Assembly (NCBI RefSeq): GCF_001544615.1
Contig: NZ_FCNV02000012.1
Span: forward strand, 98,708-162,707
Source of the DNA: Caballeronia concitans
GTDB taxonomy: Bacteria; Pseudomonadota; Gammaproteobacteria; Burkholderiales; Burkholderiaceae
Reading direction: 5' to 3'
Length of the DNA stretch: 64,000 nucleotides
The position numbers were made by a program, and so were the translations under genes. The notes below the pieces were generated by a model, which saw nothing but the letters and a program-made list of their open reading frames with translations, ran no database searches and was not told the origin of the DNA. This document shows, piece after piece, positions 42,476-64,000 of the stretch; the first letter of the stretch is position 1, and each line of letters starts with the position of its first letter.

Positions 42476-42486
42476 GGAAGCCGGGC

Positions 42487-43557: not shown

Positions 43558-43590
43558 AGGCTATCAGGCTACTTACTCAGGAGACGAACC

Positions 43591-44604
43591 ATGAAAATCT
43601 GCGTATACGGCGCCGGCGCCATCGGCGGTTACATGGGGGCGCAACTCGCGCGCGCCGGAGCCGATGTCAGCTTCGTGGCGCGCGGGCCGCATCTGGCGGC
43701 GATGCAGGCAAACGGCGTGCGCCTGAGGATCGATGGGGAAGAGCACACGGTCAAGGTCCGCTGCACGAATAATCCCGCCGAGCTTGGGCCGCAGGATTAC
43801 GTGATCATCGCGCTGAAGGCGCACTCGGTGCCCGGTGTGGTCGATCTGATTCCGCCGCTCCTCGGCCCCGATACGGCCATCGTCACCGCGGTCAACGGCC
43901 TGCCTTACTGGTACTTCTACGAGCACGGCGGCGAGTTTGCCGGGACGAAGCTGCAAAGCATCGATCCGGGCGGCCGGCAGTGGGACGTGTTCGGCCCGGA
44001 ACGCGCGATCGGCTGCGTGCTGCTGCCGGCGGCGGAAATCGCGGAGCCGGGTGTGATCGAGCATCACTACGGCAAGAAGTTTCCGATCGGCGAGCCGAGC
44101 GGCCAGATCACGCCGCGCTTGCAGGCGCTGCACGACATCATGGTCGCCGCCGACATGGAAGCGCCGATGCGCGACAACATCCGCGACGAAATCTGGCTCA
44201 AGCTGTGGGGCAATCTCTGCTTCAACCCCATCAGCGCGCTCACGCACGCGACGCTCGACGTCCTCACGAGCGATCCCGGCACGCGCGCGCTCTCCAAGGC
44301 GATGATGCTGGAGGCGAAGGCCATCGGCGACAGGATCGGCGTGAATTTCCGCGTGGACGTGGAGCGGCGGATCAACGGCGCGGGCGCGGTGGGTGCGCAC
44401 AAGACATCGATGCTGATGGATTGCGAAGCGGGCCGTCCGATGGAAATCGACCCGCTCATCACGGTCGTGCAGGAGATCGGCCGTCTGGTGAAGATCGACA
44501 CGCCGATGATCGATGCCGTCCTTGCATTGATCAAATTGCGAGAGGCGGTGAACCAAGGCACGGCGCGTGCGCTACCACTCCCGCAAGCGCAGAAAGCGGC
44601 ATAA
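43591..44604 (+). CDS. Ketopantoate reductase (PanE/ApbA) family oxidoreductase
   Basis: 337 residues. N-terminal NADPH-binding GAGAIGGYMGAQLARAGADVSFVARG, then IALKAHSVPGV and the catalytic-region LKLWGNLCFNPISALTHAT (the Lys is the family acid/base candidate), with KTSMLMDCEAGRPMEIDPL near the end. The start at ATG 43591 follows CAGGAGA. Its place between regulators of a formyl-CoA locus suggests reduction of a 2-oxo acid other than ketopantoate; that is inference. Confidence 0.88.
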   Translation: MKICVYGAGAIGGYMGAQLARAGADVSFVARGPHLAAMQANGVRLRIDGEEHTVKVRCTNNPAELGPQDYVIIALKAHSVPGVVDLIPPLLGPDTAIVTAVNGLPYWYFYEHGGEFAGTKLQSIDPGGRQWDVFGPERAIGCVLLPAAEIAEPGVIEHHYGKKFPIGEPSGQITPRLQALHDIMVAADMEAPMRDNIRDEIWLKLWGNLCFNPISALTHATLDVLTSDPGTRALSKAMMLEAKAIGDRIGVNFRVDVERRINGAGAVGAHKTSMLMDCEAGRPMEIDPLITVVQEIGRLVKIDTPMIDAVLALIKLREAVNQGTARALPLPQAQKAA

Positions 44605-44631
44605 ACTGCACTCGACGGCCCACGCGTTGTT

Positions 44632-44645
44632 TCTGATATACAAGA
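44632..44645. promoter_or_regulatory. GntR-type operator site 2
   Basis: TCTGATATACAAGA lies just upstream of the promoter of the small membrane gene and gntR. It matches site 1 at 11 of 14 positions, so gntR may regulate itself. Confidence 0.5.
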
Positions 44646-44651
44646 TGCAAA

Positions 44652-44685
44652 ATATGTTGCGTCCTGCTGCGACGCAACATATACT
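44652..44685 (+). promoter_or_regulatory. Promoter inside a perfect 12-base inverted repeat
   Basis: ATATGTTGCGTC (44652-44663) and GACGCAACATAT (44671-44682) are exact reverse complements seven bases apart. TTGCGT (44657-44662) and TATACT (44680-44685), 17 bases apart, look like the -35 and -10 boxes, so a protein on the repeat would cover the promoter. It precedes the small membrane gene and gntR. Confidence 0.55.
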
Positions 44686-44718
44686 AGGGGCTCTTGAGTG
44701 ATTTAACCGGAGCCTGAG

Positions 44719-44940
44719 ATGAGCATCGCCTTGTTGGTAGTTGTCGGATTCGCGTTGGTGGCCGTTGGTGTGGGCGTTACCTTTATGATTGCGTCCGCGG
44801 TGCCGCAGGACATGCTGCAGCGCGCACAGGAACACGGTCGTTTCGCCGGTCTCGCGGCGGACGAGCGGAACGGCGGTTCGGGCAAGCGCGTCACTGCAGA
44901 CCGGCCGCAAATGGGAAATCAAGTCATCAATGCCATCTGA
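44719..44940 (+). CDS. Small single-helix membrane protein, unknown
   Basis: 73 residues: MSIALLVVVGFALVAVGVGVTFMIAS is a membrane helix, followed by a hydrophilic tail. CGGAG stands about six bases before the ATG. The stop overlaps the gntR start by eleven bases, which suggests coupled translation. No family recognised. It could be a small regulator or only a leader reading frame. Confidence 0.5.
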   Translation: MSIALLVVVGFALVAVGVGVTFMIASAVPQDMLQRAQEHGRFAGLAADERNGGSGKRVTADRPQMGNQVINAI

Positions 44941-45655
44941 TACTCAATCCGTAGAACGGCCGGAAGTTCGAGGGCTCACGCTCTCGCTGGAGCCGATCAA
45001 TGCCACGGTTTCGCTGCGCGACCAGGCGTACGCGAAACTGCGGCAGGCAATCGCGGAGGCGGATATCTACCGCTCGCGCGAGGAAATCCGTCTGGACGAA
45101 AAAGAGCTGACGGAGGCGCTCGGGGTGAGCCGCACGCCCATTCGCGAGGCCATGACGTTGCTGGAGCAGGAAGGCTTTCTGCGCACGGTGCCGCGCCGGG
45201 GCGTGTATATCTTGCGCAAGACCAAGCGCGAGATCGTCGAGATGATTCACATGTGGGCGGCGCTCGAAAGCATGGCGGCGCGCCTTGCCACGCAGCGCGC
45301 GACGGACGAGGAAATCGCCCATCTGCGCCACATGTTCGACAATTTCCGCGATTCCACGCCCGCCGAGCATATCGACGAGTATTCGGAAGCGAACATCGCG
45401 TTCCATCAGGCGATCGTGCGGCTTTCGAAGTCGCAGATCATCTTCGATACGATCAAGAACATCTTCGTGCACGTGCGCGCCATCCGAAAGATGACGATCT
45501 CGCAGAGCGACCGCGCGTCGCGCTCGATCGTCGATCACATGCGGATCATCGAGGCGCTGGAGAAGCGCGATACGGAACTGGTCGAACGGCTCGTGAAGCA
45601 GCATTCGCTCGATCTGGCGGCGTTCGTCGAGGCGAATTGCGATTTTCTGGATTGA
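44930..45655 (+). CDS. GntR-family regulator, FCD subfamily
   Basis: 241 residues from ATG 44930. The winged helix has IRLDEKELTEALGVSRTPIREAMTLLEQEGFLRTVPRRGVYI; the C-terminal FCD domain has metal-ligand-like FHQAIVRLSKSQII and DHMRIIEALEKRDTELVERLVKQH. FCD regulators usually sense organic acids and bind short palindromes. Four TGNTATATCANA-type sites nearby (43544, 44632, 47866, 48039) mark its probable regulon: the PanE-like gene, itself, sucCD and the ThDP lyase operon. Confidence 0.9.
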   Translation: MPSDTQSVERPEVRGLTLSLEPINATVSLRDQAYAKLRQAIAEADIYRSREEIRLDEKELTEALGVSRTPIREAMTLLEQEGFLRTVPRRGVYILRKTKREIVEMIHMWAALESMAARLATQRATDEEIAHLRHMFDNFRDSTPAEHIDEYSEANIAFHQAIVRLSKSQIIFDTIKNIFVHVRAIRKMTISQSDRASRSIVDHMRIIEALEKRDTELVERLVKQHSLDLAAFVEANCDFLD

Positions 45656-45680
45656 GGCGGGTTCAGCTAGTTAGTAAGAG

Positions 45681-45714
45681 AAAAGGCCGCGCGGTGTTTG
45701 CCGCGCGGCCTTTT
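45681..45714. terminator. Bidirectional terminator between gntR and sucD
   Basis: A 14-base perfect stem AAAAGGCCGCGCGG / CCGCGCGGCCTTTT with loop TGTTTG. It gives T runs on both strands and ends the two convergent transcripts. Confidence 0.88.
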
Positions 45715-45733
45715 GCTTTCGTGCCTCAGAACG

Positions 45734-46606
45734 TTACCGCAGCGCCCGCACCATCGTTTCCCCCAGCGTCGCGGGCGAATCCGCGACATGAATCCCCGCC
45801 GACCTCATCGCGTCGATCTTCGCGCTCGCCGTCCCTGAGCCGCCGGAAATGATCGCGCCCGCGTGGCCCATGCGCCGTCCGGGCGGCGCGCTCGTTCCCG
45901 CGATGAATCCGACCACCGGCTTCCTCGATTTCGCGTCCTTCAGGAACTGCGCGGCTTCCTCTTCCGCCGATCCGCCGATCTCGCCGATCATGATGATGCC
46001 TTCGGTGGCGTCATCGGCGAGAAAGAGCGCGAGGCAGTCGATGAAATTCGTCCCGTTCACCGGATCGCCGCCAATGCCGATGCACGTGGTCTGCCCGAGC
46101 CCCGCGGCGGTCGTCTGCGCGACGGCCTCGTACGTCAGCGTGCCCGACCGCGACACGACGCCGATCTTCCCCGGCCGATGAATATGCCCCGGCATGATGC
46201 CGATCTTGCATTCGCCAGGCGTGATGACGCCCGGACAGTTCGGCCCGACGAGACGGCTCTTCGACCCCGCGAGCGCGCGCTTCACGCGCAGCATGTCGAG
46301 CACCGGAATGCCTTCGGTGATGCAGACGATGAACGGCACTTCCGCATCGATGGCTTCGAGGATCGCATCGGCGGCGAAGGGCGGCGGCACGTAAATCACG
46401 GACGCCTCCGCGCCCGTTCGGGCGACCGCGTCGGCCACCGTGTCGAACACCGGCAGCTCCAGATGCGTCGTGCCGCCCTTGCCGGGCGTGACGCCGCCGA
46501 CCATGCGCGTGCCGTACGCGATCGCCTGCTCGGAATGAAATGTGCCCTGCGCGCCGGTGAAGCCCTGGCAAATGACCTTCGTATCTTTATTGATGAGAAC
46601 GCTCAT
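45734..46606 (-). CDS. sucD: Succinyl-CoA ligase alpha subunit (SucD-like)
   Basis: 290 residues with the CoA-binding Rossmann domain ([19 protein letters not shown]), [20 protein letters not shown] and the phosphohistidine region [18 protein letters not shown]. Its ATG overlaps the sucC stop (ATGA). The sequence has the look of alphaproteobacterial SucD (for example [33 protein letters not shown]). With a formyl-CoA locus divergent to it, it may be a dedicated second copy acting on succinyl-CoA or a related dicarboxylyl-CoA such as malyl-CoA. Confidence 0.9.
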
Positions 46607-47805
46607 TTCGACTCTCCCACGGCAACGGCGGAAACGATCTTGTCGGCGGCATCGGCGAGATTTTCTGCCGGGATGATGGCGAGGCCCGAGCTGCGGAGAA
46701 TTTCGCGTCCGGCGTCGACGTTGGTGCCCGCGAGACGCACGACGAGCGGCACGTGCAGGTCGATCTCGCGCGCCGCCGCGACCACGCCTTGCGCGATCAC
46801 GTCGCACCGCATGATGCCGCCGAAGATGTTGACGAGGATGCCGCGCACTTTCGGGTCGCGCAGGATCAGCTTGAACGCGGTCGCGACGCGTTCTTGCGTC
46901 GCGCCGCCGCCCACGTCGAGAAAGTTCGCGGGTTCGCCGCCGTACAGCTTGATGATGTCCATCGTCGCCATCGCGAGGCCCGCGCCGTTCACCATGCAGC
47001 CGATGTTGCCGTCGAGCTTCACGTAGTTCAGGCCGTGCTTCGCCGCTTCGATTTCGGCGGGATCTTCCTCGTCCTCGTCGCGCAACGCTTCGATGTCCGG
47101 ATGCCGGTAGAGCGCGTTGTCGTCGAAATTGAGCTTGGCGTCGAGCGCCATCACGTCGCCGGAACCGGTCACGACGAGCGGATTCACTTCGACGACGGAC
47201 GCGTCCAGATCGACGAACGCCTGATACAGCGCCGCGATGAACTTCGACGCCGCCGCGACCTGCTTGCCGCTGAGCCCGAGCCCGAACGCCACTTGCCGCG
47301 CATGATACGGCTGGAGGCCGGTCGCCGGATCGATCGCTACTTTCAGGATTTTCTCCGGCGTGCGGTGCGCGACTTCCTCGATCTCCATCCCGCCTTCGGT
47401 CGACGCCATGATCGTGATGCGCGACGTGGCGCGATCGACGAGCATCCCGAGATACAGCTCGCGCGCGATGTCGCAGCCTTCCTCGATATAGAGCCGCTTC
47501 ACTTCCTTGCCTGCCGCGCCGGTCTGCTTGGTCACGAGCACGGAGGACAGCATCTTCTGCGCGTTCGCGCGCACGTCATCGACCGATTTGACGACGCGCA
47601 CCCCGCCCTTGCCGTCGGGGTCGTTTGAAAAGCGTCCGGCGCCCCGGCCGCCCGCGTGAATCTGTGATTTCACGACCCATACCGGACCGCCGAGCGCGGT
47701 CGCGGCGTCCGCGGCTTCCTGCGCATTGAAGGCGACGCGGCCTTGCGGGACCGCGACGCCGTACTTTCGCAGCAGCGCCTTCGCCTGGTACTCATGGATG
47801 TTCAT
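46603..47805 (-). CDS. sucC: Succinyl-CoA ligase (ADP-forming) beta subunit (SucC-like)
   Basis: 400 residues with an ATP-grasp domain ([51 protein letters not shown]) and the C-terminal ligase domain ([35 protein letters not shown]). The C-terminal [19 protein letters not shown] resembles both alphaproteobacterial SucC and malate-CoA ligase MtkA. It starts 60 bases from a perfect GntR-type operator shared with the divergent ThDP lyase operon. Confidence 0.9.
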
Positions 47806-47865
47806 TGCGTCTCCTGTTTTGATGGCTGTGGCGCGAGAAGGATGAGCGGGGCGTTCGCGCTGGTA

Positions 47866-47879
47866 TGTGATATATCACA
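47866..47879. promoter_or_regulatory. GntR-type operator site 3 (perfect palindrome)
   Basis: TGTGATATATCACA is exact; with flanking bases the palindrome extends to 47865-47880. It lies between sucCD (minus) and the lyase operon (plus), nearer to sucC. Confidence 0.6.
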
Positions 47880-48038
47880 TTTCACGACGATCAAAAAAGA
47901 TCGGCAAGGCGGGGATTTTTGCTGCGCTGCGACCAAAACGAAAGCGAAAGTCAAGCGGGAAAAGCCACGCAGCCCATGACGCACTGCATCACAGGGTTTT
48001 CGCCCTCGCCGAACGCTTGACTAATACTGTGTGTGGAA

Positions 48039-48052
48039 TATTGTATATCACA
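48039..48052. promoter_or_regulatory. GntR-type operator site 4
   Basis: TATTGTATATCACA, matching the right half of the perfect site 3. It is 63 bases before the ThDP lyase start and followed by a strong AGGAGGAGA ribosome site at 48101. Confidence 0.5.
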
Positions 48053-48114
48053 GAAACCGGGCGGCAGCGCGACGCCCGGGATCGCACACAACCCCCATCG
48101 AGGAGGAGACAACA

Positions 48115-49881
48115 ATGTCCGAAGTCGTCAGCAGCCGTCCGGAAACCGCTCCCGCCAGCACCACCGCCGAAGACACGCTCAAACAGAAAACACGCGGCGC
48201 GGGCGTCGTTTCGGGCGGCCACCTGGTCGCGCGAGCACTCAAGAACGAAGGCGTCGACACCATTTTCACCCTGTGCGGCGGCCACATCATCGACATCTAT
48301 GACGGTTGCGTCGATGAAGGCATCCGCATCATCGACGTTCGCCACGAGCAGGTCGCCGCCCATGCCGCCGACGGCTACGCGCGTCAGACCGGCAAGCTCG
48401 GCTGCGTCGTCACGACGGCCGGCCCCGGCTGCACCAACGCCGTGACGGGCGTCGCCACGGCATTCCGCTCGGAAAGCCCGATCATCCACATCGGCGGTCA
48501 GGGCGCGCTCACGCAGCACAAGATGGGTTCGCTGCAAGACCTGCCGCACGTCGACATGATGGCGCCGATCACCAAGTTCGCCGCCACCGTGCCGAGCACC
48601 GAGCGCGTCGCCGACATGGTGTCGATGGCCGCGCGCGAAGCGTTCAACGGCGCGCCCGGCCCGGCGTATCTGGAAATTCCGCGCGACGTGCTCGACCGTG
48701 AAATCGACATCAGCAAGGCCGTGATTCCGCAGCCGGGGCGCTATCGCGCATCGACGAAATCGGTCGGCGATCCGAAGGACATCGAAAAGCTCGCCGATCT
48801 GCTCGTCAACTCCGAGCGTCCGGCGATTCTCTACGGCCAGCAAGTCTGGACGGCGCGCGGTCACGAAGAAGCCGTCGCGCTGCTGCGCGGTCTCGATATT
48901 CCCGGCTACTTCAACGGCGCGAGCCGCGGCCTGCTGCCGCCGGGCGATCCGCATCACTTCGACCGCACGCGCTCGCAGGCTTTCGCGAAGGCGGATCTGA
49001 TCGTGATCGTCGGCACGCCGTTCGATTTCCGCATGGGTTACGGCAAGCGCATCAGCAAGGATCTGAAGCTCGTTCAGATCGACATGGATTACCGCACGGT
49101 CGGCAAGAACCGCGAGATCGACCTGGGCCTCGTCGGCGATCCGGGCGCGATTCTCGGCGCGGTGCTGCAGGCCGCGAGCGGGCGTCTCAAGAACGACAAG
49201 CGCCAGTCGCGCCAGGCTTGGATGCGCGAACTCGCGGCAGCCGAGGAAACCGCGACCGCCAAGCTCATGCCGCTTTTCACGTCGAACGCGAGCCCGATCC
49301 ATCCGTATCGCGTCGCGCATGAAATCAATCAGTTCCTGTCCGACGACACCATCTACATCGGCGATGGCGGCGACGTCGTCACCATCTCCGCGCAAGCGGT
49401 GCGTCCGCGCCGCCCCGGCCAGTGGATGGACCCGGGCGCGCTCGGATCGCTCGGCGTCGGCACCGGCTTCGCGATCGCGGCGGGCCTGGCGAATCCCGAG
49501 AAGGAAGTGCTCTGCTACTACGGCGACGGCGCGTTCTCAATGACCTCGTTCGACATGGAAACGGCGAATCGCTTCGGCGTGCCGTATATCGCGGTCGTCG
49601 GCAACAACTCGGCGATGAACCAGATCCGCTACGGCCAGCTCGCCAAGTACGGGGAAGAGCGCGGCAACGTCGGCAATCTGCTCTCGGACGTGCCGTACGG
49701 ACGCTTCGCGGAAATGCTCGGCGGCTACGGCGAAGAGGTGTACGAAGCGTCGAAGATCGCGGGTGCGTTGCAGCGGGCGCGCGAGTCGATCGCGAAGACA
49801 GGCAAGAGCGCGGTCATCAACATCTGGGTCGATCCTACGGTTTATGCCCCTGGCACGATGGCGCAAACCATGTACAAATAA
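48115..49881 (+). CDS. ThDP-dependent 2-hydroxyacyl-CoA lyase/oxalyl-CoA decarboxylase-like enzyme
   Basis: 588 residues with all three ThDP-enzyme domains. The cofactor-activating Glu78 is in RHEQVAAHAADGYAR; the Mg/ThDP motif runs from GDG (470-472) to NN (497-498). The region WMDPGALGSLGVGTGFAIAAGL is like 2-hydroxyacyl-CoA lyases. It lacks the GDSAFGFSGME signature of YfdU-type oxalyl-CoA decarboxylases. Next to a formyl-CoA transferase it probably makes or uses formyl-CoA: by decarboxylating oxalyl-CoA or by splitting a 2-hydroxyacyl-CoA. An acetolactate-synthase-like annotation would be less fitting. Confidence 0.78.
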   Translation: MSEVVSSRPETAPASTTAEDTLKQKTRGAGVVSGGHLVARALKNEGVDTIFTLCGGHIIDIYDGCVDEGIRIIDVRHEQVAAHAADGYARQTGKLGCVVTTAGPGCTNAVTGVATAFRSESPIIHIGGQGALTQHKMGSLQDLPHVDMMAPITKFAATVPSTERVADMVSMAAREAFNGAPGPAYLEIPRDVLDREIDISKAVIPQPGRYRASTKSVGDPKDIEKLADLLVNSERPAILYGQQVWTARGHEEAVALLRGLDIPGYFNGASRGLLPPGDPHHFDRTRSQAFAKADLIVIVGTPFDFRMGYGKRISKDLKLVQIDMDYRTVGKNREIDLGLVGDPGAILGAVLQAASGRLKNDKRQSRQAWMRELAAAEETATAKLMPLFTSNASPIHPYRVAHEINQFLSDDTIYIGDGGDVVTISAQAVRPRRPGQWMDPGALGSLGVGTGFAIAAGLANPEKEVLCYYGDGAFSMTSFDMETANRFGVPYIAVVGNNSAMNQIRYGQLAKYGEERGNVGNLLSDVPYGRFAEMLGGYGEEVYEASKIAGALQRARESIAKTGKSAVINIWVDPTVYAPGTMAQTMYK

Positions 49882-49923
49882 AGAGCGATCAAGACGCGAA
49901 CGGACAGACTTAGGGAGACAGCC

Positions 49924-51183
49924 ATGAGCAACACCTCGGGCAAGGCACTCGACGGAGTGCGCATTCTCGACTTCACGCACGTTCAATCGGGCCCGACCTG
50001 CACGCAACTGCTGGCGTGGTTCGGCGCGGACGTCATCAAGGTGGAGCGCGCCGGCGCGGGCGACATCACGCGGGAGCAACTGCGCGATATTCCCGACGCC
50101 GACAGCCTCTACTTCACGATGCTGAACCACAACAAGCGGTCGATCACCATCGACACGAAGAATCCCGAGGGCAAGAAAGTGCTCGAGACGCTCGTCAAGA
50201 AGTGCGACGTGCTCGTCGAGAACTTCGCGCCGGGCGCGCTGGATCGCATGGGCTTCACGTGGGAGCGCATCCAGGAGCTGAATCCGGCGATGATCGTCGC
50301 GTCCGTGAAGGGCTTCGGCCCGGGGCCGTACGAAGACTGCAAGGTCTACGAGAACGTCGCGCAGTGCGCGGGCGGCGCGGCATCGACCACCGGTTTCGAC
50401 GACGGCCCGCCCGTCGTCACCGGCGCGCAGATCGGCGATTCGGGCACGGGGCTGCATCTCGCGCTCGGCATCGTGACGGCGCTTTATCAGCGCAATCGCA
50501 CGGGACGCGGACAGAAAGTGCTCGCGGCGATGCAGGACGGCGTGCTCAACCTCTGCCGCGTGAAGCTGCGCGACCAGCAGCGGCTCGAACGCACCGGCGT
50601 GATGAAGGAGTATCCGCAGTATCCGAACGGCACGTTCGGCGAGGCGGTGCCGCGCGCGGGCAACGCATCGGGCGGCGGCCAGCCGGGCTGGATCCTGAAG
50701 TGCAAGGGCTGGGAAACCGATCCGAACGCGTACATCTACTTCATCACGCAGGCGCCGGTGTGGGGCGAAATCTGCAAGGTGATCGGCAAGGAGGAGTGGA
50801 TCGATCATCCGGACTTCAAGACGCCCAACGCGCGGCTGCCGCATCTGAAGGACATCTTCGCCGAGATCGAACGCTGGACCATGACGAAGACCAAGTTCCA
50901 GGCAATGGAAATCCTCAACAAGCACGACATTCCGTGCGGTCCGATCCTGTCGATGAAGGAGATCGCGGAAGAGCCGTCGCTCAGAAAGACGGGCACGGTC
51001 GTGGAAGTCGATCATCCGGTGCGCGGCAAGTACCTGACGGTCGGCAATCCGATCAAGCTGTCCGATAGCCCGACCGACGTGGTGCGCTCGCCGCTGCTTG
51101 GCGAGCACACCGAAGAAGTCATGGCCGAGCTCGGCTACTCGCCCGACCAGATCGCGACGCTGAGAAGCCTCGGCGCGATCTGA
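49924..51183 (+). CDS. frc: Formyl-CoA:oxalate CoA-transferase, YfdW type
   Basis: 419 residues, very close in pattern to E. coli Yfd[17 protein letters not shown], then [45 protein letters not shown] and the glycine loop [25 protein letters not shown]. The aspartyl-CoA catalytic residue is Asp172 (QIGDSGTG). Where Oxalobacter Frc has Trp48 in its glycine-loop switch, this protein has Gln52, as YfdW does. It moves CoA from formyl-CoA to an acid. It is second in the operon after the ThDP lyase. Confidence 0.93.
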
Positions 51184-51267
51184 CCCGCCTCACTCGATGT
51201 TGACGCCGCCGCCCCCGCAAGAGGGGCGGCGCGGACCGGCACGCCCCTACACACGGAGACATACCAA

Positions 51268-57319: not shown

Positions 57320-57511
57320 CTAATCTCATTAATCGAGCGTCGGATTAGTTCGATAAATTGGGATTTATCTTCTGCGACGAGCGCGATCGCGCTTGTAGAA
57401 TCGCCCCGCTTATGAACGCCCGCGTTGCCGTACGAGGCGGGCAAGGCAAGCACCGCTCTCAATAACGACGTGTCGTCGCAGACGCGTTGCGCTTCCCTGA
57501 TAAAAATCGAG

Positions 57512-58219
57512 ATGTTCAAGAAAACCGTCGCCGCTGTCTTTGCTATTTCTGCCGTGCTTTCCGGCTGTGCGTCCAATTCCGGGGCTACGTTCAATATTCA
57601 GCCGATCACAACGTCGAGCGGGCAGCAGGCGTTTCGCGCCGAATGCTACGGCCTTTTCGAAAGCGGCAGCGCCTGCATGAAGGCCGTGCAAAGCGCCTGC
57701 GGCAATCAGCCATACACCGTGCTGCAGAACGTCACGGGCACGCGCGCACCGGGCGATGCGCGCGAAGTCGTCTTCATGTGCGGCGCGCCCGCTCAACCCG
57801 CGCCCGCGCCTGCACCGGCCGCTCAGCCGGCGCCGCCGCCTGCCGCCGCGCCCGTCGCGCCGGCTCCGGCGTCCACACGCAAGGTCACGCTCGATGAAAA
57901 GACCAACTTCGCCTTCGATAGCGCTCAATTGACGCCGAATGCCCGGACCATTCTCGACAGGCTCATCGCCGAAGTCCGCGACGTGACCTTCGCTTCGGTC
58001 ACGGTCGAAGGCTTCACCGACGCCGTCGGTCCCGCGCAATACAACGTCGCGCTGTCGGAGCGCCGCGCGCAAGCCGTGCTCGGGTATCCGAAGAGCCACG
58101 GCCTTCAGGCGCAGGCGTTCGCGATGAAGGGTTACGGCAAGGCACGCCCGGTTGCATCGAATGCGACGAGCGATGGCCGCGCCGAGAATCGCCGCGTGGA
58201 AATTCTGCTGAAGCAGTAA
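57512..58219 (+). CDS. OmpA-family lipoprotein
   Basis: 235 residues. Lipobox LSGC at about 15-18, a Cys-containing globular part, a Pro/Ala linker (about 93-125) and a C-terminal OmpA peptidoglycan-binding domain: TNFAFDSAQLTPNARTILDRLI and YNVALSERRAQAVL. It should tie the outer membrane to peptidoglycan. The start is ATG 57512; the longer frame puts 29 residues ahead of the lipoprotein signal. Confidence 0.9.
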   Translation: MFKKTVAAVFAISAVLSGCASNSGATFNIQPITTSSGQQAFRAECYGLFESGSACMKAVQSACGNQPYTVLQNVTGTRAPGDAREVVFMCGAPAQPAPAPAPAAQPAPPPAAAPVAPAPASTRKVTLDEKTNFAFDSAQLTPNARTILDRLIAEVRDVTFASVTVEGFTDAVGPAQYNVALSERRAQAVLGYPKSHGLQAQAFAMKGYGKARPVASNATSDGRAENRRVEILLKQ

Positions 58220-58240
58220 GCCGCATCGCAAGGCGCCCGG

Positions 58241-58277
58241 AAAAAAGCTCGCGCACCGCATGGCCGCGAGCTTTTTT
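58241..58277. terminator. Bidirectional terminator between ompA-like gene and ogt
   Basis: AAAAAAGCTCGCG / CGCGAGCTTTTTT with an 11-base loop; six T on each strand. Confidence 0.88.
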
Positions 58278-58292
58278 GTGCAGTTGAAATAG

Positions 58293-58802
58293 TCAGAACA
58301 GCTGCAACTGCTCGCGGCCCGGTCCGCCTTCGAGCGTGAGCAGCCAGCGCTTGCGATCGACGCCGCCCGCGTAGCCCGTCAACTCGCCGTCGCCGCCGAT
58401 CACGCGATGACACGGCACGATGATCGCCACCGGATTGCGCCCGTTCGCGCCGCCGACGGCCCGCGATGCGCCCGGCGGCAAACCCAGCCGGCGCGCGAGA
58501 TCGCCGTAGGTCCAGGCATCGCCGAAAGGAATCTGGCGCAACAACTCCCAGACCTGCTGCTGGAACGCCGTGCCGTGCAGTCGCGTGGGCACTGAGAATG
58601 CCCGGCGCCCGCCCGCGAGGTATTCGCCAATCTCTTCCCGCGCCTGATCGATCACGCGCGGCGCGGGGCGATCTTCAGCGGGCATCGTCACGCCCGGCGG
58701 AAAATGCTTCTGCCCGACGAAGAAAAGCCCGGTCAGGCAGTCGCCTTCCGCGCGATAAAGAATCGGCCCGAGCGGACTCGGGCTCACGTGGCATTCGATC
58801 AC
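58293..58802 (-). CDS. ogt: Methylated-DNA-protein cysteine methyltransferase
   Basis: 169 residues. The acceptor Cys131 is in IIVPCHRVIGGDGELTGYAGG, the universal AGT motif; RAVGGANGRNP carries the Asn hinge and Arg finger. It transfers the methyl group of O6-methylguanine onto itself. There is no Ada regulatory domain, so it is the constitutive Ogt type. The next gene's stop lies one base upstream. Confidence 0.94.
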   Translation of the reverse strand: MIECHVSPSPLGPILYRAEGDCLTGLFFVGQKHFPPGVTMPAEDRPAPRVIDQAREEIGEYLAGGRRAFSVPTRLHGTAFQQQVWELLRQIPFGDAWTYGDLARRLGLPPGASRAVGGANGRNPVAIIVPCHRVIGGDGELTGYAGGVDRKRWLLTLEGGPGREQLQLF

Positions 58803-58803
58803 G

Positions 58804-59064
58804 TCAGATGAACGGATTGTCGGCGGTGCCGGTGGGCGCGGGCGGTTCGTCCGGCAGCTTCGCGGGAAGGTTCGATTCCTTCTTCAGCGCCTCGACGATC
58901 GCGCCCAGCGCATCGTGGAGCGCCTGCGCGGCGGCCAGTCCCGCCTGGTCCCGCGCGATGGTCAGGTCGCCGCTGACCGTCACGCGCGTCTTGCCGTTGA
59001 CGATGTTGATGGCGTCGCCCGCGATGTTCATCGCGTCGGTATCGTTGGCAAATGGCTTAAACAC
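58804..59064 (-). CDS. Small protein of unknown function
   Basis: 86 residues: FANDTDAMNIAGDAINIVNGKTRVTVSGDLTIARDQAGLAAAQALHDALGAIVEALKKESNLPAKLPDEPP, then a short tail. It has a beta-rich first half and one helix; the DxxAMNIAGDxINIVNG pattern does not ring a known family for me. It lies between ogt and the nuclease fragment and overlaps the latter by eight bases. Confidence 0.6.
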   Translation of the reverse strand: MFKPFANDTDAMNIAGDAINIVNGKTRVTVSGDLTIARDQAGLAAAQALHDALGAIVEALKKESNLPAKLPDEPPAPTGTADNPFI

Positions 59065-59404
59065 CTCTCAATCCTCCAATTCGTTTGTCTTTCAGTGCGT
59101 CGGGAATGCCGGGAAACGCGAGGCCGCTCATTGCTTCGAGTTCGCGCACGGTCTTCATCGTATAGGTTTTGGTCGGCATGTTCTCGACGACCACCGCGAA
59201 AGCAATCTGCCGCTGCGGCAGATACACGACCTTGTACAGTTGCGTCGGCACGAGCACGCGCGATTCGCCGATGGTCTGCAATTGCCGGCCCGAGAACAGC
59301 GGCCCGGTGACGACGTACGCTTCGCCCGATTCCTCGGTGAGCCGGCGCACCGCTTCTTCGATGCGCGACCAGATGCTCCGGTTGTTCGACGGATCCTGCG
59401 GCAC
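59057..59404 (-). pseudogene. 3' fragment of a DNA/RNA non-specific endonuclease
   Basis: 115 residues matching only the C-terminal half of NUC1-type secreted nucleases: IVPQDPSNNRSIWSRIEEAVRR (metal-binding Asn region), YVVTGPLFSG, ENMPTKTYTMKTVRELEAMSGLAFPGI. The signal peptide and the catalytic DRGHxxP part are absent. In frame, a TAA codon lies just before Asn-Ile-Val-Pro-Gln (about base 59410), and beyond it the DNA is unrelated. The gene was cut at that point, at the edge of what looks like an inserted island. Confidence 0.75.
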
Positions 59405-59690
59405 GATGTTTTATGCAGACCCAAGGTGTTCACTTTACTTCGCGAACACCCTTAGTTCGCGAGGGTTGAAGGTTTTGCTTTTGTGTTTTCGGTCCTCTAT
59501 CTCTTTCCTCCTACAGGGGGTGCAGGGGGGGGCGGGCCGAAAGTTATCCACACAAAACGGTGCTGGCGGACACGTGCGGTCGCGAACAGTGCGGACCAGT
59601 AACGGAAAACGCCAAGCCTAAAGCAGCGCTCAAGAAGGAGTTTGTTTGGTAACGTAACGCGTGCGACAACCACTACTTCCGCAAGCGCTA
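59405..59690. other. Island edge: hairpin, pyrimidine and G tracts, DnaA box
   Basis: 286 bases without a gene. From 59420 an imperfect inverted repeat AAGGTGTTC ... GAACACCCTT occurs. A pyrimidine tract, then a G-rich tract (59515-59537), then TTATCCACA at 59544-59552, an exact DnaA box. The mix recalls plasmid replication or transfer regions. Confidence 0.45.
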
Positions 59691-60275
59691 ATGAAACTGA
59701 AGTTTGCAGTTCTCGCATCGATCGTCGTTGCGGCCATTTGCAGCACGTTCGCTCCGTCCGCCGGCGCGCTTGACCTTTTGCATTGGGGCCCCGCCGCCGG
59801 CACTAAGCCCGCCGATTTCGAGGATGGCGCTTCGTACCAACTGTGCTTCGTGCCCGACGGTGCAAGCTGCCAGGACCTCCTCGTTTCAGCAATCGACCAG
59901 ACGCGTTCGCAGCTCCGCGTGCAGGCCTACTCGTTCACGAGCGCTCCGATCGCGGCTGCAATCAAGCGTGCGAAGGACCGCGGTGTCGACGTGAGGGTCA
60001 TCCTCGATAAGAGCCAGGTTTCGCAGAAGTATTCTGGAGCGACCTATCTGCGCAATGCTGGCATCGATGTCGCCATCGACATCAAGCCGGCTATCGCGCA
60101 CAACAAGGTCATGATTTTCGACGGCAAGGCGGTGTTCACTGGCTCTTTCAACTTCACAAAGGCAGCGCAGCAGCGGAACGCGGAGAATGGCATGCTTGTT
60201 CGTGGTGACCATGCGCTGACGAAGGCATATCTTTCGAACTGGGACAAGCGCTACAGCGTTTCGAGCCGCTTCTAA
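59691..60275 (+). CDS. Phospholipase D-family nuclease (Nuc type)
   Basis: 194 residues. A signal peptide (about 1-26, ending SAGA) is followed by a single HKD motif: His-Asn-Lys in AIAHNKVMIFDGKAVFTGSFNF. Ala-Tyr-Ser-Phe-Thr (QAYSFTSAPI) and the motif spacing are those of the dimeric, EDTA-resistant Nuc found in the transfer regions of plasmids such as pKM101. It should be a periplasmic endonuclease. It supports a plasmid or integrative-element origin for this end of the window. Confidence 0.85.
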   Translation: MKLKFAVLASIVVAAICSTFAPSAGALDLLHWGPAAGTKPADFEDGASYQLCFVPDGASCQDLLVSAIDQTRSQLRVQAYSFTSAPIAAAIKRAKDRGVDVRVILDKSQVSQKYSGATYLRNAGIDVAIDIKPAIAHNKVMIFDGKAVFTGSFNFTKAAQQRNAENGMLVRGDHALTKAYLSNWDKRYSVSSRF

Positions 60276-60671
60276 TCAAAGGCAAACGGAAGCCCGTAGG
60301 CTACTGCCTCATACTGCGGCGCGGGACGCCCGCGTCGACGTGATCATTCCACCTGCAGCAAGTTGCGGCGTTACTAAAGTGAGCGCGGCCTCCTGGAGCC
60401 GTTATGTTCGACGAGGGCCTTGTCTACAGGACGGCACCGGATGCCGCGCGGATCCACTTCCTAAACTGAGTCGAAGCACCCTTGGAAGTATCCGCCTTGC
60501 CGACGCCGCAATCTAGCGCTTGGAGAAGACCGCCGCTGGACCGGTCGATCGCATCGCCCGTCAGCCAAGAGACGCCCTCAAAGTCGATCGTCGTTGGCGA
60601 AGGCGAGCAAAGTTGATAGACATTGCATCGTCGGAGACGTCTGCGGCCAAGGCAATCCTGCGTACAGGTCG
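60276..60671. other. Gap without a supported gene
   Basis: 396 bases. On the minus strand pieces of open frame exist (for example one reading TIDFEGVSWLTGDAID at about 60545-60595), but stops interrupt them. This may be a decayed gene; I cannot name it. Confidence 0.4.
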
Positions 60672-60980
60672 TTATTGCTGAGCCTTCCTTGTACGCTTCT
60701 TGGCTGGCTTCCTTAGGCTTGCCTTCATCGCTTCAAGTCTGGAAATGCCGACTTCGATCTCATCCAACAACGTAGTCAGGGGAAGACCTATTGCCCGGCA
60801 CCACTCCCGGACCTCGATAAAGTCCAGACGGCGCTCCCCGACCTCGCACTTGCTGACTTTTGACTGAGTGAGATCCAATCGCAAAGCCAGTTCCGCCTGT
60901 GAAATCCCAGCGGTTTTCCTGGCGTTGCGGAGGATTTCTAGCATGAGCTCGTATTGTTGGGTGTAAATCGACTTTTCCAC
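60672..60980 (-). CDS. XRE-family transcriptional regulator
   Basis: 102 residues. Helix-turn-helix ARKTAGISQAELALRLDLTQSKVSKCEVGERRLDFIEVREW and a Lys/Arg-rich tail. GTG 60980 is chosen so as to keep SIYTQQYELMLEIL, which is typical just before the helix-turn-helix; TTG 61037 is possible but lies next to the operator. A perfect inverted repeat upstream (61042-61064) is its likely autoregulatory site. In this setting it may regulate or belong to the neighbouring antitoxin-like genes. Confidence 0.82.
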   Translation of the reverse strand: MEKSIYTQQYELMLEILRNARKTAGISQAELALRLDLTQSKVSKCEVGERRLDFIEVREWCRAIGLPLTTLLDEIEVGISRLEAMKASLRKPAKKRTRKAQQ

Positions 60981-61026
60981 TTTTCGACCAAGCTGGCAGA
61001 GGCGGAAAAGCTTGCCGACAAACTTC

Positions 61027-61064
61027 GAATAGTCCAAAATCGAATAGTCGAAAATCGACTATTC
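61027..61064. promoter_or_regulatory. XRE operator: perfect inverted repeat plus extra half-site
   Basis: GAATAGTCG (61042-61050) and CGACTATTC (61056-61064) are exact reverse complements around AAAAT. Fifteen bases to the left another half-site, GAATAGTCC (61027-61035), repeats the left arm. It lies between the XRE gene and the divergent antitoxin-like array. Confidence 0.6.
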
Positions 61065-61315
61065 ACTGTGCGAGGGGCGCACGAGTGTGCCAGCTTTCTG
61101 AGAATGCAGGGTGAGTCCACCGCGTAGGTAGTGGGGACGCGTTGGAAGTGCACTGCGAGGGCCTTCCGGCTAATGACCAGGGCGGGCCCGGCGAATTGGG
61201 CCGCCGGCTGCCCAAACCCAACTGTGGCAGTTCGCTGACTCGAGGTAGTTCCCTGTCCGAATCGGCGTCCTGCCACGCGGACGGCGTTACTCGAGGTCGA
61301 CCAGAGGAACTGATG
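61065..61315. other. Leader region of the antitoxin-domain array
   Basis: 251 bases. It holds no supported gene; an open frame runs into the first antitoxin-domain gene from 61142 but has no helix-turn-helix and no ribosome site. It should contain the promoter for the plus-strand array. Confidence 0.4.
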
Positions 61316-61513
61316 ATGGATGTTCTAGTGTTGAGCACTATAACGGAGCAGGCGATCAGCGTGCTCGGGTCCGTACAAGCAGCGCAAGACTGGCTCGCTG
61401 CGCCAGCTATCGCCTTGGACGGCCGCCGACCGCTCGACATGCTGTACGACCCGAGCGGAATGCGCGCGGTCATGACTCTGCTCTTACGCATGGACTTTTG
61501 CGTCTACGCCTAA
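61316..61513 (+). CDS. Stand-alone MbcA/ParS/Xre-type antitoxin domain (DUF2384), copy 1
   Basis: 65 residues that are almost only the toxin-binding domain: ITEQAISVLGSVQAAQDWLAAPAIALDGRRPLDMLYDPSGMRAV, then MTLLLRMDFCVYA. The WL-P-aLdGrrPldmL-G-V order is the DUF2384 signature. GAGGA stands seven bases before ATG 61316 (also an ATG at 61313). Normal family antitoxins have an extra N-terminal helix-turn-helix of about 60 residues, missing here. No RES-type toxin gene follows. Confidence 0.72.
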   Translation: MDVLVLSTITEQAISVLGSVQAAQDWLAAPAIALDGRRPLDMLYDPSGMRAVMTLLLRMDFCVYA

Positions 61514-61544
61514 AGACGAAAACACGGCGGCGAGGAGTTGCCTT

Positions 61545-61805
61545 ATGGCCATCAGGGAGTTGCAGGTGCGCAGCGATGGTTGGGGTTGCGAGGAGTCAGC
61601 CGCATTGTTGCGCCTCGCACGTGTCCTGGCTCGCGCTGCCGAGACCTTTGAAGATTTCGATCTTGGATTTGCGTGGCTTAACTCGCCGGTCGCTGCATTT
61701 AAAGGCGCCACGTCGATGAGTTCGCGCGATAAGGAGTTTGGCGTCGAGTTCGTAATGGATGTGCTCGGACCGGTTGAGCACGGTGTGTTTCCCTTATGCA
61801 TTTGA
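61545..61805 (+). CDS. MbcA/ParS/Xre-type antitoxin-domain protein, copy 2
   Basis: 86 residues, ATG 61545 with GGAG seven bases upstream. LLRLARVLARAAETFEDFDLGFAWLNSPVAAFKGATSM and FGVEFVMDVLGPVEHGVFP follow the DUF2384 pattern from the helix before the domain to its usual end. The N-terminal half is too short for a full helix-turn-helix. It is 31 bases after copy 1. Confidence 0.72.
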   Translation: MAIRELQVRSDGWGCEESAALLRLARVLARAAETFEDFDLGFAWLNSPVAAFKGATSMSSRDKEFGVEFVMDVLGPVEHGVFPLCI

Positions 61806-61824
61806 CGCGAGCGCAGAGAATCTC

Positions 61825-62187
61825 ATGAGCACAAAAGCAACCCTTGCCTACCACTCAGCCGAAGGCGACGAACCGACTTGGCACCTTTACGAGGAACTCT
61901 TTGAGTCAGGCGTGGTGTACCTTGAGATTCGTGGCGTCGACGTTGAGTCGGTGACCGGCGAGAATCGTTCGGGTGCATGTGGCGGTGTGAACCTCGTGTT
62001 GCGCTTGCCCATCAAGACAGCAAGTCAACTCGGATTGCATTCTATCGCAGAGCCCGACCGGTGGCAGCGTGCCTCCGACCCGGACAAAGATGAGAGCCTT
62101 CGGAGGGGCCTCGAGCGATTCAGTCGGTTGCGCGGGTCCATTGCGCGCGGTGATTCTACCAAGAAGCCGGAGACGGATGAGTCATGA
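61825..62187 (+). CDS. Protein of unknown function in the antitoxin array
   Basis: 120 residues from ATG 61825 with AGAGA upstream. The central part is strand-rich (WHLYEELFESGVVYLEIRGVDVESV; GGVNLVLRLPIKTASQLGLHSI), the end is charged (SLRRGLERFSRLRGSIARG). Its stop overlaps the next start (ATGA), so it is co-translated with antitoxin-domain copy 3. I do not recognise the family. Confidence 0.65.
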   Translation: MSTKATLAYHSAEGDEPTWHLYEELFESGVVYLEIRGVDVESVTGENRSGACGGVNLVLRLPIKTASQLGLHSIAEPDRWQRASDPDKDESLRRGLERFSRLRGSIARGDSTKKPETDES

Positions 62188-62729
62188 CATCGCGCACCAC
62201 AGTCCTCCTCGCTATCGCCTCTACCGCGGCCCTTTGGCTTACACGAATCACTGGCGTGGCGACTGCACGTCGGACGGCGGATGTTGCGAAACGTGGGGCC
62301 GGTGCAGCGCTGGTCGCGGAAGGGAGTTTGCCGCTGGCGTCTCCGTCGAAATGTATATGCTTCGATGCCCATCGTCTGCGCGTCACGTCCGGCAACGGGG
62401 CGTATGGAAAGCAGGGACTCACCGCTTCACCAGAGCGCCCCAAGGAAGGAGAAAGGCGGTCAATTCTCAAGCTGGCTGGCTCGGTTAAGTCGGCGATCTC
62501 CGGTGTGTCCATCGAAGACATGAAGTCCTGGCGCCAAGGTCCGTCCTTGGCACGGCTGCTCCGCCTCGCACAGCATGTGTGGAGCGATTCGAGAGACGCC
62601 GCGGCGTGGATGTCGAATGCGCAGATTGCACTCGGCGGGAAAACGCCCATTCAGGCTGTCATGACCGACTCTGGCGCGGAAAGGGTGGAAGCTATCCTGT
62701 GGCGTCGTATTCATGGAGCTACAACATGA
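62184..62729 (+). CDS. MbcA/ParS/Xre-type antitoxin-domain protein with unusual N-terminus, copy 3
   Basis: 181 residues. The C-terminal 60, ARLLRLAQHVWSDSRDAAAWMSNAQIALGGKTPIQAVMTDSGAERV followed by EAILWRRIHGATT, are a clear DUF2384 domain. The N-terminus has a hydrophobic stretch (TTVLLAIASTAALWLT) and no evident helix-turn-helix; a frameshift or a foreign N-terminus is possible. The gene is coupled by ATGA overlaps to the genes before and after. Confidence 0.65.
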   Translation: MTSRTTVLLAIASTAALWLTRITGVATARRTADVAKRGAGAALVAEGSLPLASPSKCICFDAHRLRVTSGNGAYGKQGLTASPERPKEGERRSILKLAGSVKSAISGVSIEDMKSWRQGPSLARLLRLAQHVWSDSRDAAAWMSNAQIALGGKTPIQAVMTDSGAERVEAILWRRIHGATT

Positions 62730-62836
62730 GGGAAGCGGACCACGTGCAACGACGAGCGGTGTTGGAGCTGATCGCGCAAGTGCAGACCATGGTCGACGAG
62801 TCGGGCGACCCCGAAGGTTTCGACGCTGCAAAGTGA
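62726..62836 (+). CDS. 36-residue peptide coupled to copy 3
   Basis: A short frame whose ATG overlaps the stop of copy 3 (ATGA): MREADHVQRRAVLELIAQV, then QTMVDESGDPEGFDAAK. It is helical and acidic at the end. The overlap makes translation plausible; no family is known to me. Confidence 0.4.
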   Translation: MREADHVQRRAVLELIAQVQTMVDESGDPEGFDAAK

Positions 62837-63038
62837 GTGCACCGGTGGCTGCACACGCCGCTGCCCGCATTAGGCGGCAAACGACCAGCCGAATACATGA
62901 GCACGTGCGAGGGTCGTCAACTTTTTTCGAGATTGCTAGCTATGGCCCAAAGTGGGGCTTACGCTTAAAGGCTCGCTTGCAAACGGCGTCCAATACTGTC
63001 GTACATATGTGTGTCGCACTATTAAGGGAGACAACAGA

Positions 63039-63452
63039 ATGAGCCCGGGACTAGATGCCATGTTGCGCGCCAATTACCCGCTCATCTTCACAGTCAAGCG
63101 CGCTGCTCCTCGCGACGACTTCTGCATCCCTGATTCGCAGAGGCCAATTCACGCACGAGGTTTCGAATGCGGTGACGGATGGTTTGACCTCATCGACGCG
63201 CTTTGTGTGCAGTTGCAAGCCGCGACGAAGAACGGCGCGCCGCAAGTAGTTGCTACTCAGGTGAAGGAGAAGTTCGGCAGGCTTCGCTTCTATTCGTGCG
63301 GCCAAAATGACGAGCAAGAAGGCATGATCGAACTAGCCGAAGCGATAAGTGCTCGCCTTTGTGAAGTGTGCGGGAACCGAGGTCGTATCGTTGAAGACCG
63401 GTGGCTCCGGACGCGTTGTCCCGAGCACGCACAAAGCTTGTTTCGATCGTAA
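63039..63452 (+). CDS. Phage/plasmid-type conserved protein with zinc-ribbon-like end
   Basis: 137 residues from ATG 63039, which follows AAGGGAGA. The middle GFECGDGWFDLIDALCVQLQ and VKEKFGRLRFYSCG is a pattern seen in small proteins of phages and islands; the end has Cys-x2-Cys-Gly and a later Cys-x2-His (LCEVCGNRGRI; RTRCPEHAQ), likely a metal site. It lies between antitoxin-domain copies 3 and 4. Function unknown. Confidence 0.7.
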   Translation: MSPGLDAMLRANYPLIFTVKRAAPRDDFCIPDSQRPIHARGFECGDGWFDLIDALCVQLQAATKNGAPQVVATQVKEKFGRLRFYSCGQNDEQEGMIELAEAISARLCEVCGNRGRIVEDRWLRTRCPEHAQSLFRS

Positions 63453-63471
63453 CCCAACAGCGCAGAAGAAC

Positions 63472-63762
63472 ATGACCTCAAGTGACGTCAATCCGCTCGA
63501 CACGCTGGCTAGCGACGCTTGCGATTTGTACACGGCCCTCCAAGACACTGGCCATCGGGCAATGGATGCTTTGCGCGCGATGGACCCGGAAGTAGTCGAG
63601 GAACTGCTTGCGACGTTCGAGTCGGAAGACCGAGCGGCAGGCTGGCTCATCAGCCGGACCATTGGTTTCGGAGGTCACAGCGCATTGGACTTGCTCGCAC
63701 AGCGAAAGCGAGAACAGGTGATGGACGTCATTCATCACCTTCGCTATGGGTTTTGTGCGTGA
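63472..63762 (+). CDS. MbcA/ParS/Xre-type antitoxin-domain protein, copy 4
   Basis: 96 residues from ATG 63472 with AGAAG upstream. VVEELLATFESEDRAAGWLISRTIGFGGHSALDLLAQRKREQV, then MDVIHHLRYGFCA, is the GHSALDLL-type version of the DUF2384 domain. The N-terminal 40 residues (PLDTLASDACDLYTALQDTGHRAMDALRAM) are helical but lack a clear DNA-binding motif. It is 19 bases after the zinc-ribbon-like gene. Confidence 0.68.
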   Translation: MTSSDVNPLDTLASDACDLYTALQDTGHRAMDALRAMDPEVVEELLATFESEDRAAGWLISRTIGFGGHSALDLLAQRKREQVMDVIHHLRYGFCA

Positions 63763-64000
63763 GACCGGTGAGAGTAAAAGCTCTGTCGGCTCCTCTACCG
63801 GAACGAGGAGTAACGCCATGGTGGACACAAGTCTGCGGCTTTGCCGAGTCAGACAAAGGGCCCACCGTTTGTGTCGTCGGCCGGTCGGAGCGCTCCTGGC
63901 GCCGCCGCCGTCGCGGTGCTCCGCTAGTGCAGTGCGTCATTGAATTAGCACCCCTATCTATGCTTAGATATGGGTCATGGGCAAAATGAATTTAACCGAG
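63763..64000 (+). other. Window end: no firm gene, small inverted repeat
   Basis: 238 bases. An ATG at 63820 has a fine GAGGAG ribosome site but opens only about 41 basic codons; another frame across it stays open to 63989, so a frameshifted gene is possible. TATCTA/TAGATA (63955-63970), flanked by CCC and GGG, lies just before an ATG at 63977 that stays open to the window edge and may begin the next gene. Confidence 0.35.

What the first reader, a model, noticed from the sequence alone, without database searches (positions are those of the whole stretch)
61316..63762. Array of four antitoxin-domain proteins without a visible toxin
Four short genes each encode a DUF2384 (MbcA/ParS/Xre) toxin-binding domain, of different subtypes, within about 2.5 kb. 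They are interleaved with small unknown proteins and partly joined by ATGA overlaps. None has an obvious helix-turn-helix and no RES-type toxin is seen. Ordinary systems have one antitoxin and one toxin. The array could neutralise toxins of rival plasmids or phages (an anti-addiction store), or serve as adaptors in a defence system.
Basis: partly seen in the sequence, partly recalled or inferred. Interest (0 to 1): 0.85.

Follow-up and report, generated by a model that had tools for sequence, protein, structure and literature searches.

The report
Cluster of five toxin-less antitoxin domains
A Caballeronia bacterium carries, side by side in a foreign-looking stretch of its genome, five different cut-down antitoxins that kept only the part that grips a toxin, with no toxin next to them; at least two look worn, so it is either a small store of antidotes against other elements' toxins or a pile of antidote leftovers.

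Summary
One (E) is cut by an in-frame stop. Each matches only the C-terminal, toxin-binding half of the RES/Xre antitoxin model (positions 45-112 of 112). The nearest kin of A, B, D and E are full-length antitoxins, mostly seen next to a RES toxin and often on plasmids. The genome's three RES hits lie elsewhere, each beside another antitoxin. The conserved Caballeronia backbone stops at 59410 inside an endonuclease gene whose other part lies on contig C45, so the array sits in inserted DNA. Short stand-alone domain proteins occur in seven other sampled genomes, one family under clear purifying selection; two further tandem sets were seen. B and E look relaxed or decayed; A and D look constrained, A weakly. 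Best reading: an orphan-antitoxin array, partly decaying, that could plug RES toxins of other elements. Neutralisation is inferred, not shown. The strongest rival is debris of dead modules.

The parts
59057..59404 (-). one part of a split DNA/RNA non-specific endonuclease gene (PF01223 positions 109-216); the other part (12-109) is on contig C45
59405..59410 (.). 6-base repeat GATGTT, last bases of the conserved backbone; the same 6 bases start the right flank at C45:16710
59661..60275 (+). PLD-like protein, inside the inserted stretch
   Evidence: PF13091 88.8 bits
60672..61037 (-). Xre-type HTH regulator, points away from the array
   Evidence: PF01381 37 bits; present in G180 and G173 without the array
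61025..61064 (.). repeat block at the start of the Xre gene, kept in two other Caballeronia (probably its operator; inference)
61313..61513 (+). A: stand-alone toxin-binding domain, 65-66 aa from its ATGs
   Evidence: PF09722 43.2 bits; NF049845 positions 51-112; 60% to Paraburkholderia plasmid antitoxin ends
61545..61805 (+). B: stand-alone toxin-binding domain, 86 aa, strong Shine-Dalgarno match
   Evidence: NF049845 positions 45-111, 56.2 bits; about 61% to Caballeronia antitoxin ends; omega 0.52
61825..62187 (+). C: 120-aa protein of unknown function
   Evidence: no Pfam, PDB, NCBIfam or PHROG match; 54% copy at C7:3375
62184..62729 (+). D: toxin-binding domain in its last part (from about 62454); start open
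   Evidence: PF09722 46.6 bits; NF049845 positions 53-110
62726..62968 (+). E: toxin-binding domain cut by an in-frame TGA at 62834-62836
   Evidence: about 75% to a Caballeronia plasmid antitoxin end
63039..63452 (+). F: 137-aa protein of unknown function with Cys/His pairs; 2 of 8 relatives found in other genomes of the family are next to or fused with a divergent DUF2384-like protein
63472..63762 (+). G: most divergent toxin-binding domain, 96 aa
   Evidence: PF09722 32.8 bits; NF049845 positions 55-112; no close relative in the pattern-seeded genome-contig scan
63922..64000 (.). end of an IS630-type insertion sequence, cut by the contig end

Best explanation
An orphan-antitoxin array. Five RES/Xre antitoxins of different subfamilies have each been cut down to the C-terminal toxin-binding domain and sit as short genes in one direction inside inserted DNA. 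Shown: the domain content, the shared point of truncation, no HTH half and no RES up to the contig end, the backbone boundary at 59410, and closest kin of A, B, D and E among full-length, mostly RES-linked antitoxins. Inferred: if expressed, each intact domain binds a RES toxin of a matching subfamily and pushes its C-terminal helix into the NAD+ pocket, without DNA binding and without a toxin of its own, so that the cell or island escapes addiction to (or poisoning by) elements with RES toxins. The set is not kept perfectly: E is broken, B is drifting; A and D (perhaps G) are the candidates for working members.
For: Truncation near the same domain boundary in all five (model starts 51, 45, 53, 71 (second half of E) and 55; ends 110-112 of 112). 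B's DNA similarity to full-length genes starts abruptly near 61590, and its own start has a Shine-Dalgarno match among the best 2% of + strand ATGs. Kin of A, B, D and E lie beside RES genes. Short stand-alone domain proteins occur in G459 (65 and 70 aa), G278 (66), G580 (74), G746 (65), G842 (72 and 69), G376 (88-aa frame) and G310 (up to 107 aa); in none of these genomes is RES on the same contig, and G278, G376 and G842 have no RES match at all. The G278/G376/G580 family is under purifying selection (omega 0.12; 1 rejected, P = 9e-13). PDB 6d0h/6d0i hold a 72-residue ParS chain, in one entry called a fragment. NatR's last helix enters the NatT active site (PMC11535050, passages). A and D reject omega = 1 (P = 0.038 and 0.0026, uncorrected).
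Against: E has an in-frame stop; its branch differs from its kin (P = 0.027) and does not reject omega = 1 (P = 0.48). B's branch has omega 0.52 against 0.048 in its kin and does not reject 1. An open frame in B is no proof of use: 34-46% of neutral simulations stay open, indels ignored. A's P of 0.038 would not survive correction for the six genes tested, and the branches of A and D include time before truncation, so their constraint may be old. G has no close relatives. D's start is unclear. Shine-Dalgarno match ordinary for C, absent for G. No promoter beyond chance was found. No toxin was tested.
Confidence: 0.45

Rival explanations
1. Debris. The inserted stretch is a graveyard of RES/Xre modules that lost toxin and HTH; the C-terminal pieces are the last traces and do nothing.
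For: E is broken, B evolves like a neutral sequence; insertion sequences lie at the array's end and on C45; the own genome holds another module (C3) whose RES match covers only positions 16-56 of 157.
Against: All five remnants keep the same half and no RES or HTH trace was found; all point one way and lie close together with C and F; D rejects omega = 1, A weakly, F too (P = 0.01); stand-alone domain proteins elsewhere are conserved.
Confidence: 0.36
2. Orphan immunity genes against RES-type toxins injected by competitors (polymorphic toxins), rather than against plasmid addiction.
For: RES is listed as a toxin domain of T2SS, T5SS and T6SS polymorphic toxins (PMC3482391, passages); immunity-gene arrays are described in Vibrio (PMC5361080, passages).
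Against: That paper lists Imm51 for such toxins and DUF2384 for the antitoxin systems; nearest kin here are antitoxins in TA operons.
Confidence: 0.11
3. Adaptors or modulators: the domains bind the cell's own RES/Xre complexes (C3, C10, C27) or other partners and change their regulation, perhaps with C and F.
For: D and E have distant kin in the own modules at C10 (39%) and C3 (35%); F relatives are next to or fused with a divergent DUF2384-like protein in G112 and G055; in P. putida the Xre:RES stoichiometry decides DNA binding (PMC12204516, passages).
Against: Low identity to the own modules; A, B, D and E have closer foreign kin; six of eight F relatives and the Chitinibacter one show no such neighbour in the stretch held; of the relatives of C outside this window whose surroundings were held, only L084 has a DUF2384 antitoxin nearby and C7 the divergent form.
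Confidence: 0.08

Closest known systems
Type II RES/Xre (MbcTA, ParST, NatRT) toxin-antitoxin modules
   Same: the toxin-binding domain (PF09722; C-terminal half of NF049845)
   Different: no HTH half, no RES toxin seen, five members side by side; none reaches the NF049845 cut-off of 90 bits
Orphan antitoxins / anti-addiction antitoxins (review PMC7354431, passages read)
   Same: antitoxin-type proteins without toxin
   Different: five truncated members of one domain class in one array; neutralisation untested
Orphan immunity-gene arrays of T6SS clusters in Vibrio (PMC5361080, passages read)
   Same: row of neutraliser genes of different types left without toxins; explained there by displacement
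   Different: TA-type antitoxin domains, no T6SS cluster shown, members are domain fragments
Stand-alone DUF2384-domain proteins in other proteobacteria (found here: G459, G842, G278, G376, G580, G310, G746)
   Same: short, mostly the domain alone, no RES on the same contig
   Different: singles, a pair, or two plus a longer one; here five
GInt islands with ginABCD (PMC5385486, abstract and passages read)
   Same: three large genes in a row plus a small one on C45, the first a tyrosine recombinase by Pfam; captured cargo
   Different: gin-like genes are not at the right edge of the insertion and the joining stretch is missing; membership not shown

Membership tests
RES/Xre toxin-antitoxin module | C-terminal toxin-binding domain PF09722 | tested here: met
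   four of five over the Pfam cut-off; B under it but 56.2 bits to NF049845
RES/Xre toxin-antitoxin module | HTH half in the antitoxin | tested here: not met
RES/Xre toxin-antitoxin module | RES toxin gene next door | tested here: not met
   three RES hits in the genome, none on C16; contig ends at 64000, so the far side is unseen
RES/Xre toxin-antitoxin module | full-length antitoxin model NF049845 over its cut-off (90 bits) | tested here: not met
   27.6-56.2 bits (E given as its second half only)
Anti-addiction orphan antitoxin | antitoxin without cognate toxin at the locus | tested here: met
Anti-addiction orphan antitoxin | neutralises the toxin of another element | not testable with these tools
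   needs an experiment
T6SS orphan immunity array | lies in the 3' region of a T6SS cluster | not tested
   no profile search for T6SS genes was made
Integron cassette array | attC site (about 57-141 bases, recalled) after each gene | tested here: not met
   gaps between ORFs are 31, 19, -4, -4, 70 and 19 bases (from; D taken from 62184); no attC model was run
GInt island | ginABCD operon | tested here: inconclusive
   C45: ORFs of 450, 672, 734 and 159 aa in a row; only the first passes a Pfam cut-off as integrase
GInt island | operon at the 5' edge of the element, flanked by imperfect direct repeats of 10-17 bases | tested here: inconclusive
   gin-like genes lie about 6 kb from the right junction; repeat seen is 6 bases; part of the insertion is missing from the assembly

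The most novel reading that the evidence does not exclude
A multi-specific antidote store: an island that gathers the toxin-binding domains of several plasmid RES/Xre modules, strips their DNA-binding halves and drops the toxins, so that it can disarm the addiction systems of rival elements; the toxin-antitoxin counterpart of the orphan immunity arrays of secretion systems, with F and C as associated proteins.
Probability: 0.27. Interest if true: 0.78.

Novelty: new variant of a known kind. Interest (0 to 1): 0.5.

Why it matters
Orphan antitoxins are often annotated, and a review says that their use as anti-addiction devices remains to be demonstrated as common (PMC7354431, passages). Here four of five domains match distinct subfamilies whose full modules are sequenced on named plasmids, so neutralisation can be tested pair by pair. 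If several work, it shows that a bare toxin-binding domain is enough to escape plasmid addiction and that such domains are collected in arrays. If none works, it shows how RES/Xre modules die.

Tried and rejected
Integron cassettes: gaps too short for attC sites. Phage origin: no PHROG match better than E 0.03; for B alone, no phage record and nothing in viral contigs. Known defence system: PADLOC gave only generic HTH hits for the Xre gene. Same array elsewhere: in the 57 other genus genomes only parts of 60600-64000 matched (Xre gene, single members' domains, a bit of C, the IS630 end), in 16 of them; never the array. PF09722 or profile searches of 150, 399 and 369 genomes (slightly overlapping samples) showed no array of more than three. 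Limits: the row lists were cut, the first look scored only part of the candidates in larger genomes, and genomes with exactly three matches were not all read in full; the 12 others with four or more, and G459, were. A close relative of G: none in the pattern-seeded genome-contig scan. A profile scan of genome contigs failed. Codon-position GC as a test of D's start: useless, it is flat in both halves of D. Open frame of B as proof of function: rejected by simulation. Structures of A and G could not be predicted.
Full report
1. Observation. PF09722 (C-terminal toxin-binding domain of Xre/MbcA/ParS antitoxins, the former DUF2384) was sought in the whole own genome and in the window proteins. The own genome has eight matches at E up to 0.001; five lie at 61313-63762, all on the + strand. 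Bits: A 43.2, B 22.4, D 46.6, second half of E 37.4, G 32.8; cut-off 24.5. B, under the Pfam cut-off, scores 56.2 bits with NF049845 (type II RES/Xre antitoxin). So there are five, not four. Two other ORFs, C and F, have no significant family match. E has an in-frame stop in its middle; intact relatives exist.

The gaps between ORFs are 31, 19, -4, -4, 70 and 19 bases if D starts at 62184. Shine-Dalgarno energy against all 1018 + strand ATGs of the window: B and F among the best 2%, D at 62184 4%, A 5-6%, E 10%; C ordinary, G none. Similarity of D to other antitoxins begins only at about 62454-62547, so its start stays open; codon-position GC does not help.

2. What the members are. Every ORF of at least 70 aa in the loci then held, own-array loci left out, was compared with 60001-64000 at E up to 1e-3. 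The array members align with the C-terminal ends of full-length antitoxins: B with residues 88-154 of 155 (61%), D with 110-166 of 169 (39%), E with 135-201 of 201 (76%), A with 93-155 of 155 (35%); G aligns weakly (43% over 35 residues). One row (L017, 31% with gaps) carries A's similarity back to 61205 in the open frame. No row came from a RES reading frame, and no HTH half appeared. NF049845 (112 positions) gives the same picture: A 51-112, B 45-111, D 53-110, second half of E 71-112, G 55-112. In DNA, B's similarity to full-length Caballeronia genes starts abruptly near 61590.

Closest named kin: A, Paraburkholderia plasmids, 60%; B, Paraburkholderia plasmids, about 70% in DNA, annotated as antitoxin and RES; D, Cupriavidus plasmids, 46%; E, Caballeronia sp. 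Lep1P3 plasmid p2, 75%, with RES next to it. Twelve kin that I picked from the upper rows (five for A, four for E, three for D) are all full-length antitoxins directly followed by a RES gene; the lists hold 26, 199 and 41 records. In the 30 family loci L017-L046 given (best scorers) my RES profile found RES beside the antitoxin in 24; L019 and L046 have none; in L030-L033 it found none, though in the three that I read (L030-L032) the next ORF looks RES-like to my eye, untested. These 30 are top scorers, so they lean towards canonical modules. G has no close relative in the genome-contig scan (pattern-seeded, own genome left out).

3. Are stand-alone domain proteins real? Short ones turned up in G459 (65 and 70 aa, in tandem), G278 (66), G580 (74), G746 (65), G842 (72 and 69 aa in tandem, then a 129-aa ORF that looks like an HTH plus DUF2384 protein to my eye), G376 (88-aa frame without ATG) and G310 (up to 107 aa). 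None was scanned for HTH, but in those of 65-74 aa the domain fills nearly the whole length. In these seven genomes no RES match lies on the same contig, and G278, G376 and G842 have none at all. The G278/G376/G580 proteins are 58-65% identical over 57 residues and under purifying selection (omega 0.12; omega = 1 rejected, P = 9e-13). In the Protein Data Bank the ParS chain of 6d0h/6d0i is 72 residues long and one title calls it a fragment; that it was solved with its toxin ParT is recalled, and the paper is not held. In NatR-NatT the last helix of the antitoxin reaches into the substrate cavity (PMC11535050, passages). So the bare domain can plausibly neutralise.

4. Selection (own codon-model script; FastTree topologies; few and short sequences; P values uncorrected). 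B with 8 kin: omega 0.52 on its branch against 0.048, 2 delta lnL 15.7; omega = 1 not rejected. E with 5 kin (L119 was fetched but not used): branch differs from kin (P = 0.027), omega = 1 not rejected (P = 0.48), plus the stop. A with 5 kin: same as kin (P = 0.79), omega = 1 rejected (P = 0.038), which would not survive correction for six genes. D with 6 kin: same as kin (P = 0.16), omega = 1 rejected (P = 0.0026) (A, D, E). F: omega 0.13, omega = 1 rejected (P = 0.01). C: not decided. Several branches are saturated, and the branches of A and D include time before truncation. B's open frame says little: 34-46% of neutral simulations stay open, indels ignored.

5. Where it lies. The genus is Caballeronia (hit coordinates of G178 equal those of Lep1P3). 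Window 57400-60640 was sought in 58 genus genomes: 57 have some match, and in 49 of the 57 genomes other than the own one a matching row ends at query base 2011, that is 59410; no listed row of another genome reaches beyond it. In G108 and G179 the sequence goes on through an endonuclease gene; in the own genome that continuation is at C45:16710. Both parts match PF01223, positions 109-216 on C16 and 12-109 on C45. The two flanks share 6 bases, GATGTT, and the inner ends look like imperfect inverted repeats in one alignment, not tested against chance. So the array lies in an insertion of at least 21 kb, if both contigs belong to one insertion (inference; a rearrangement is not excluded). C45 holds four genes in a row (450, 672, 734, 159 aa) like ginABCD of GInts (PMC5385486, abstract and passages), but only the first passes Pfam as an integrase. 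The C16 end is an IS630 end.

6. Neighbours. The Xre gene with its repeat block is kept in G180 and G173, where the array is absent. Relatives of F: of eight found in other genomes of the family, in G055 one ORF joins F to a divergent DUF2384-like domain and in G112 the two are neighbours; the other six and the Chitinibacter one show nothing of the kind in the stretch held, about 3 kb or less for the six. The link of that domain to DUF2384 rests on weak cross-matches (E 0.057-0.43 among 11,014 ORFs; all non-seed hits but one lie in DUF2384 domains) and on one Pfam hit of 17.1 bits, under the cut-off.

7. Rarity. In 150 family genomes the own genome has the most PF09722 matches (8), the next 5; in 399 order genomes the next has 6. 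The 12 other genomes with four or more matches in those samples, and G459, were then listed in full: only G459 has two close together. In 369 class genomes, G842 has a further tandem set. Limits are given under Tried and rejected. The listings of the paper searches (titles and starts of abstracts) showed no report of such an array; only open-licence papers are held.

8. Verdict. An orphan-antitoxin array with partial decay is my best reading (0.45), debris is close behind (0.36). The domain-boundary pattern and the conserved stand-alone domain proteins elsewhere speak for function; the state of B and E speaks for decay.

Noticed in passing
G000:C45:4818-10850 (L153): Three large genes in a row and a small one, the first an integrase, resembling the ginABCD operon of GInts; the right flank of the insertion follows about 6 kb later.
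   Followed up: partly
G000:C7:1-8000 (L059): A second copy of ORF C (54%) amid three divergent DUF2384-like proteins and a T5orf172 protein, before genes that look by eye like imuA, imuB and dnaE2.
   Followed up: partly
L133:7843-8697 (G055) and L134:6484-7527 (G112): ORF F relatives fused with, or next to, a divergent DUF2384-like protein.
   Followed up: partly
L109:2915-3960 (G842) and L095:139-569 (G459): Other tandem sets of short stand-alone DUF2384 proteins without RES on the contig, both near contig starts.
   Followed up: partly
G000:C3:217-1100 (L013): Full-length antitoxin followed by a RES match covering only positions 16-56 of 157; the toxin gene may be damaged.
   Followed up: no
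window 61025-61064: Repeat and palindrome block at the start of the Xre gene, nearly identical in two other Caballeronia.
   Followed up: partly
L019 and L046: Full-length antitoxin-like proteins with a LysR-type gene (by eye), not RES, next door in two related genomes.
   Followed up: no
window about 41000-51200: Genes that look by eye like an oxalate transporter and oxalyl-CoA enzymes.
   Followed up: no
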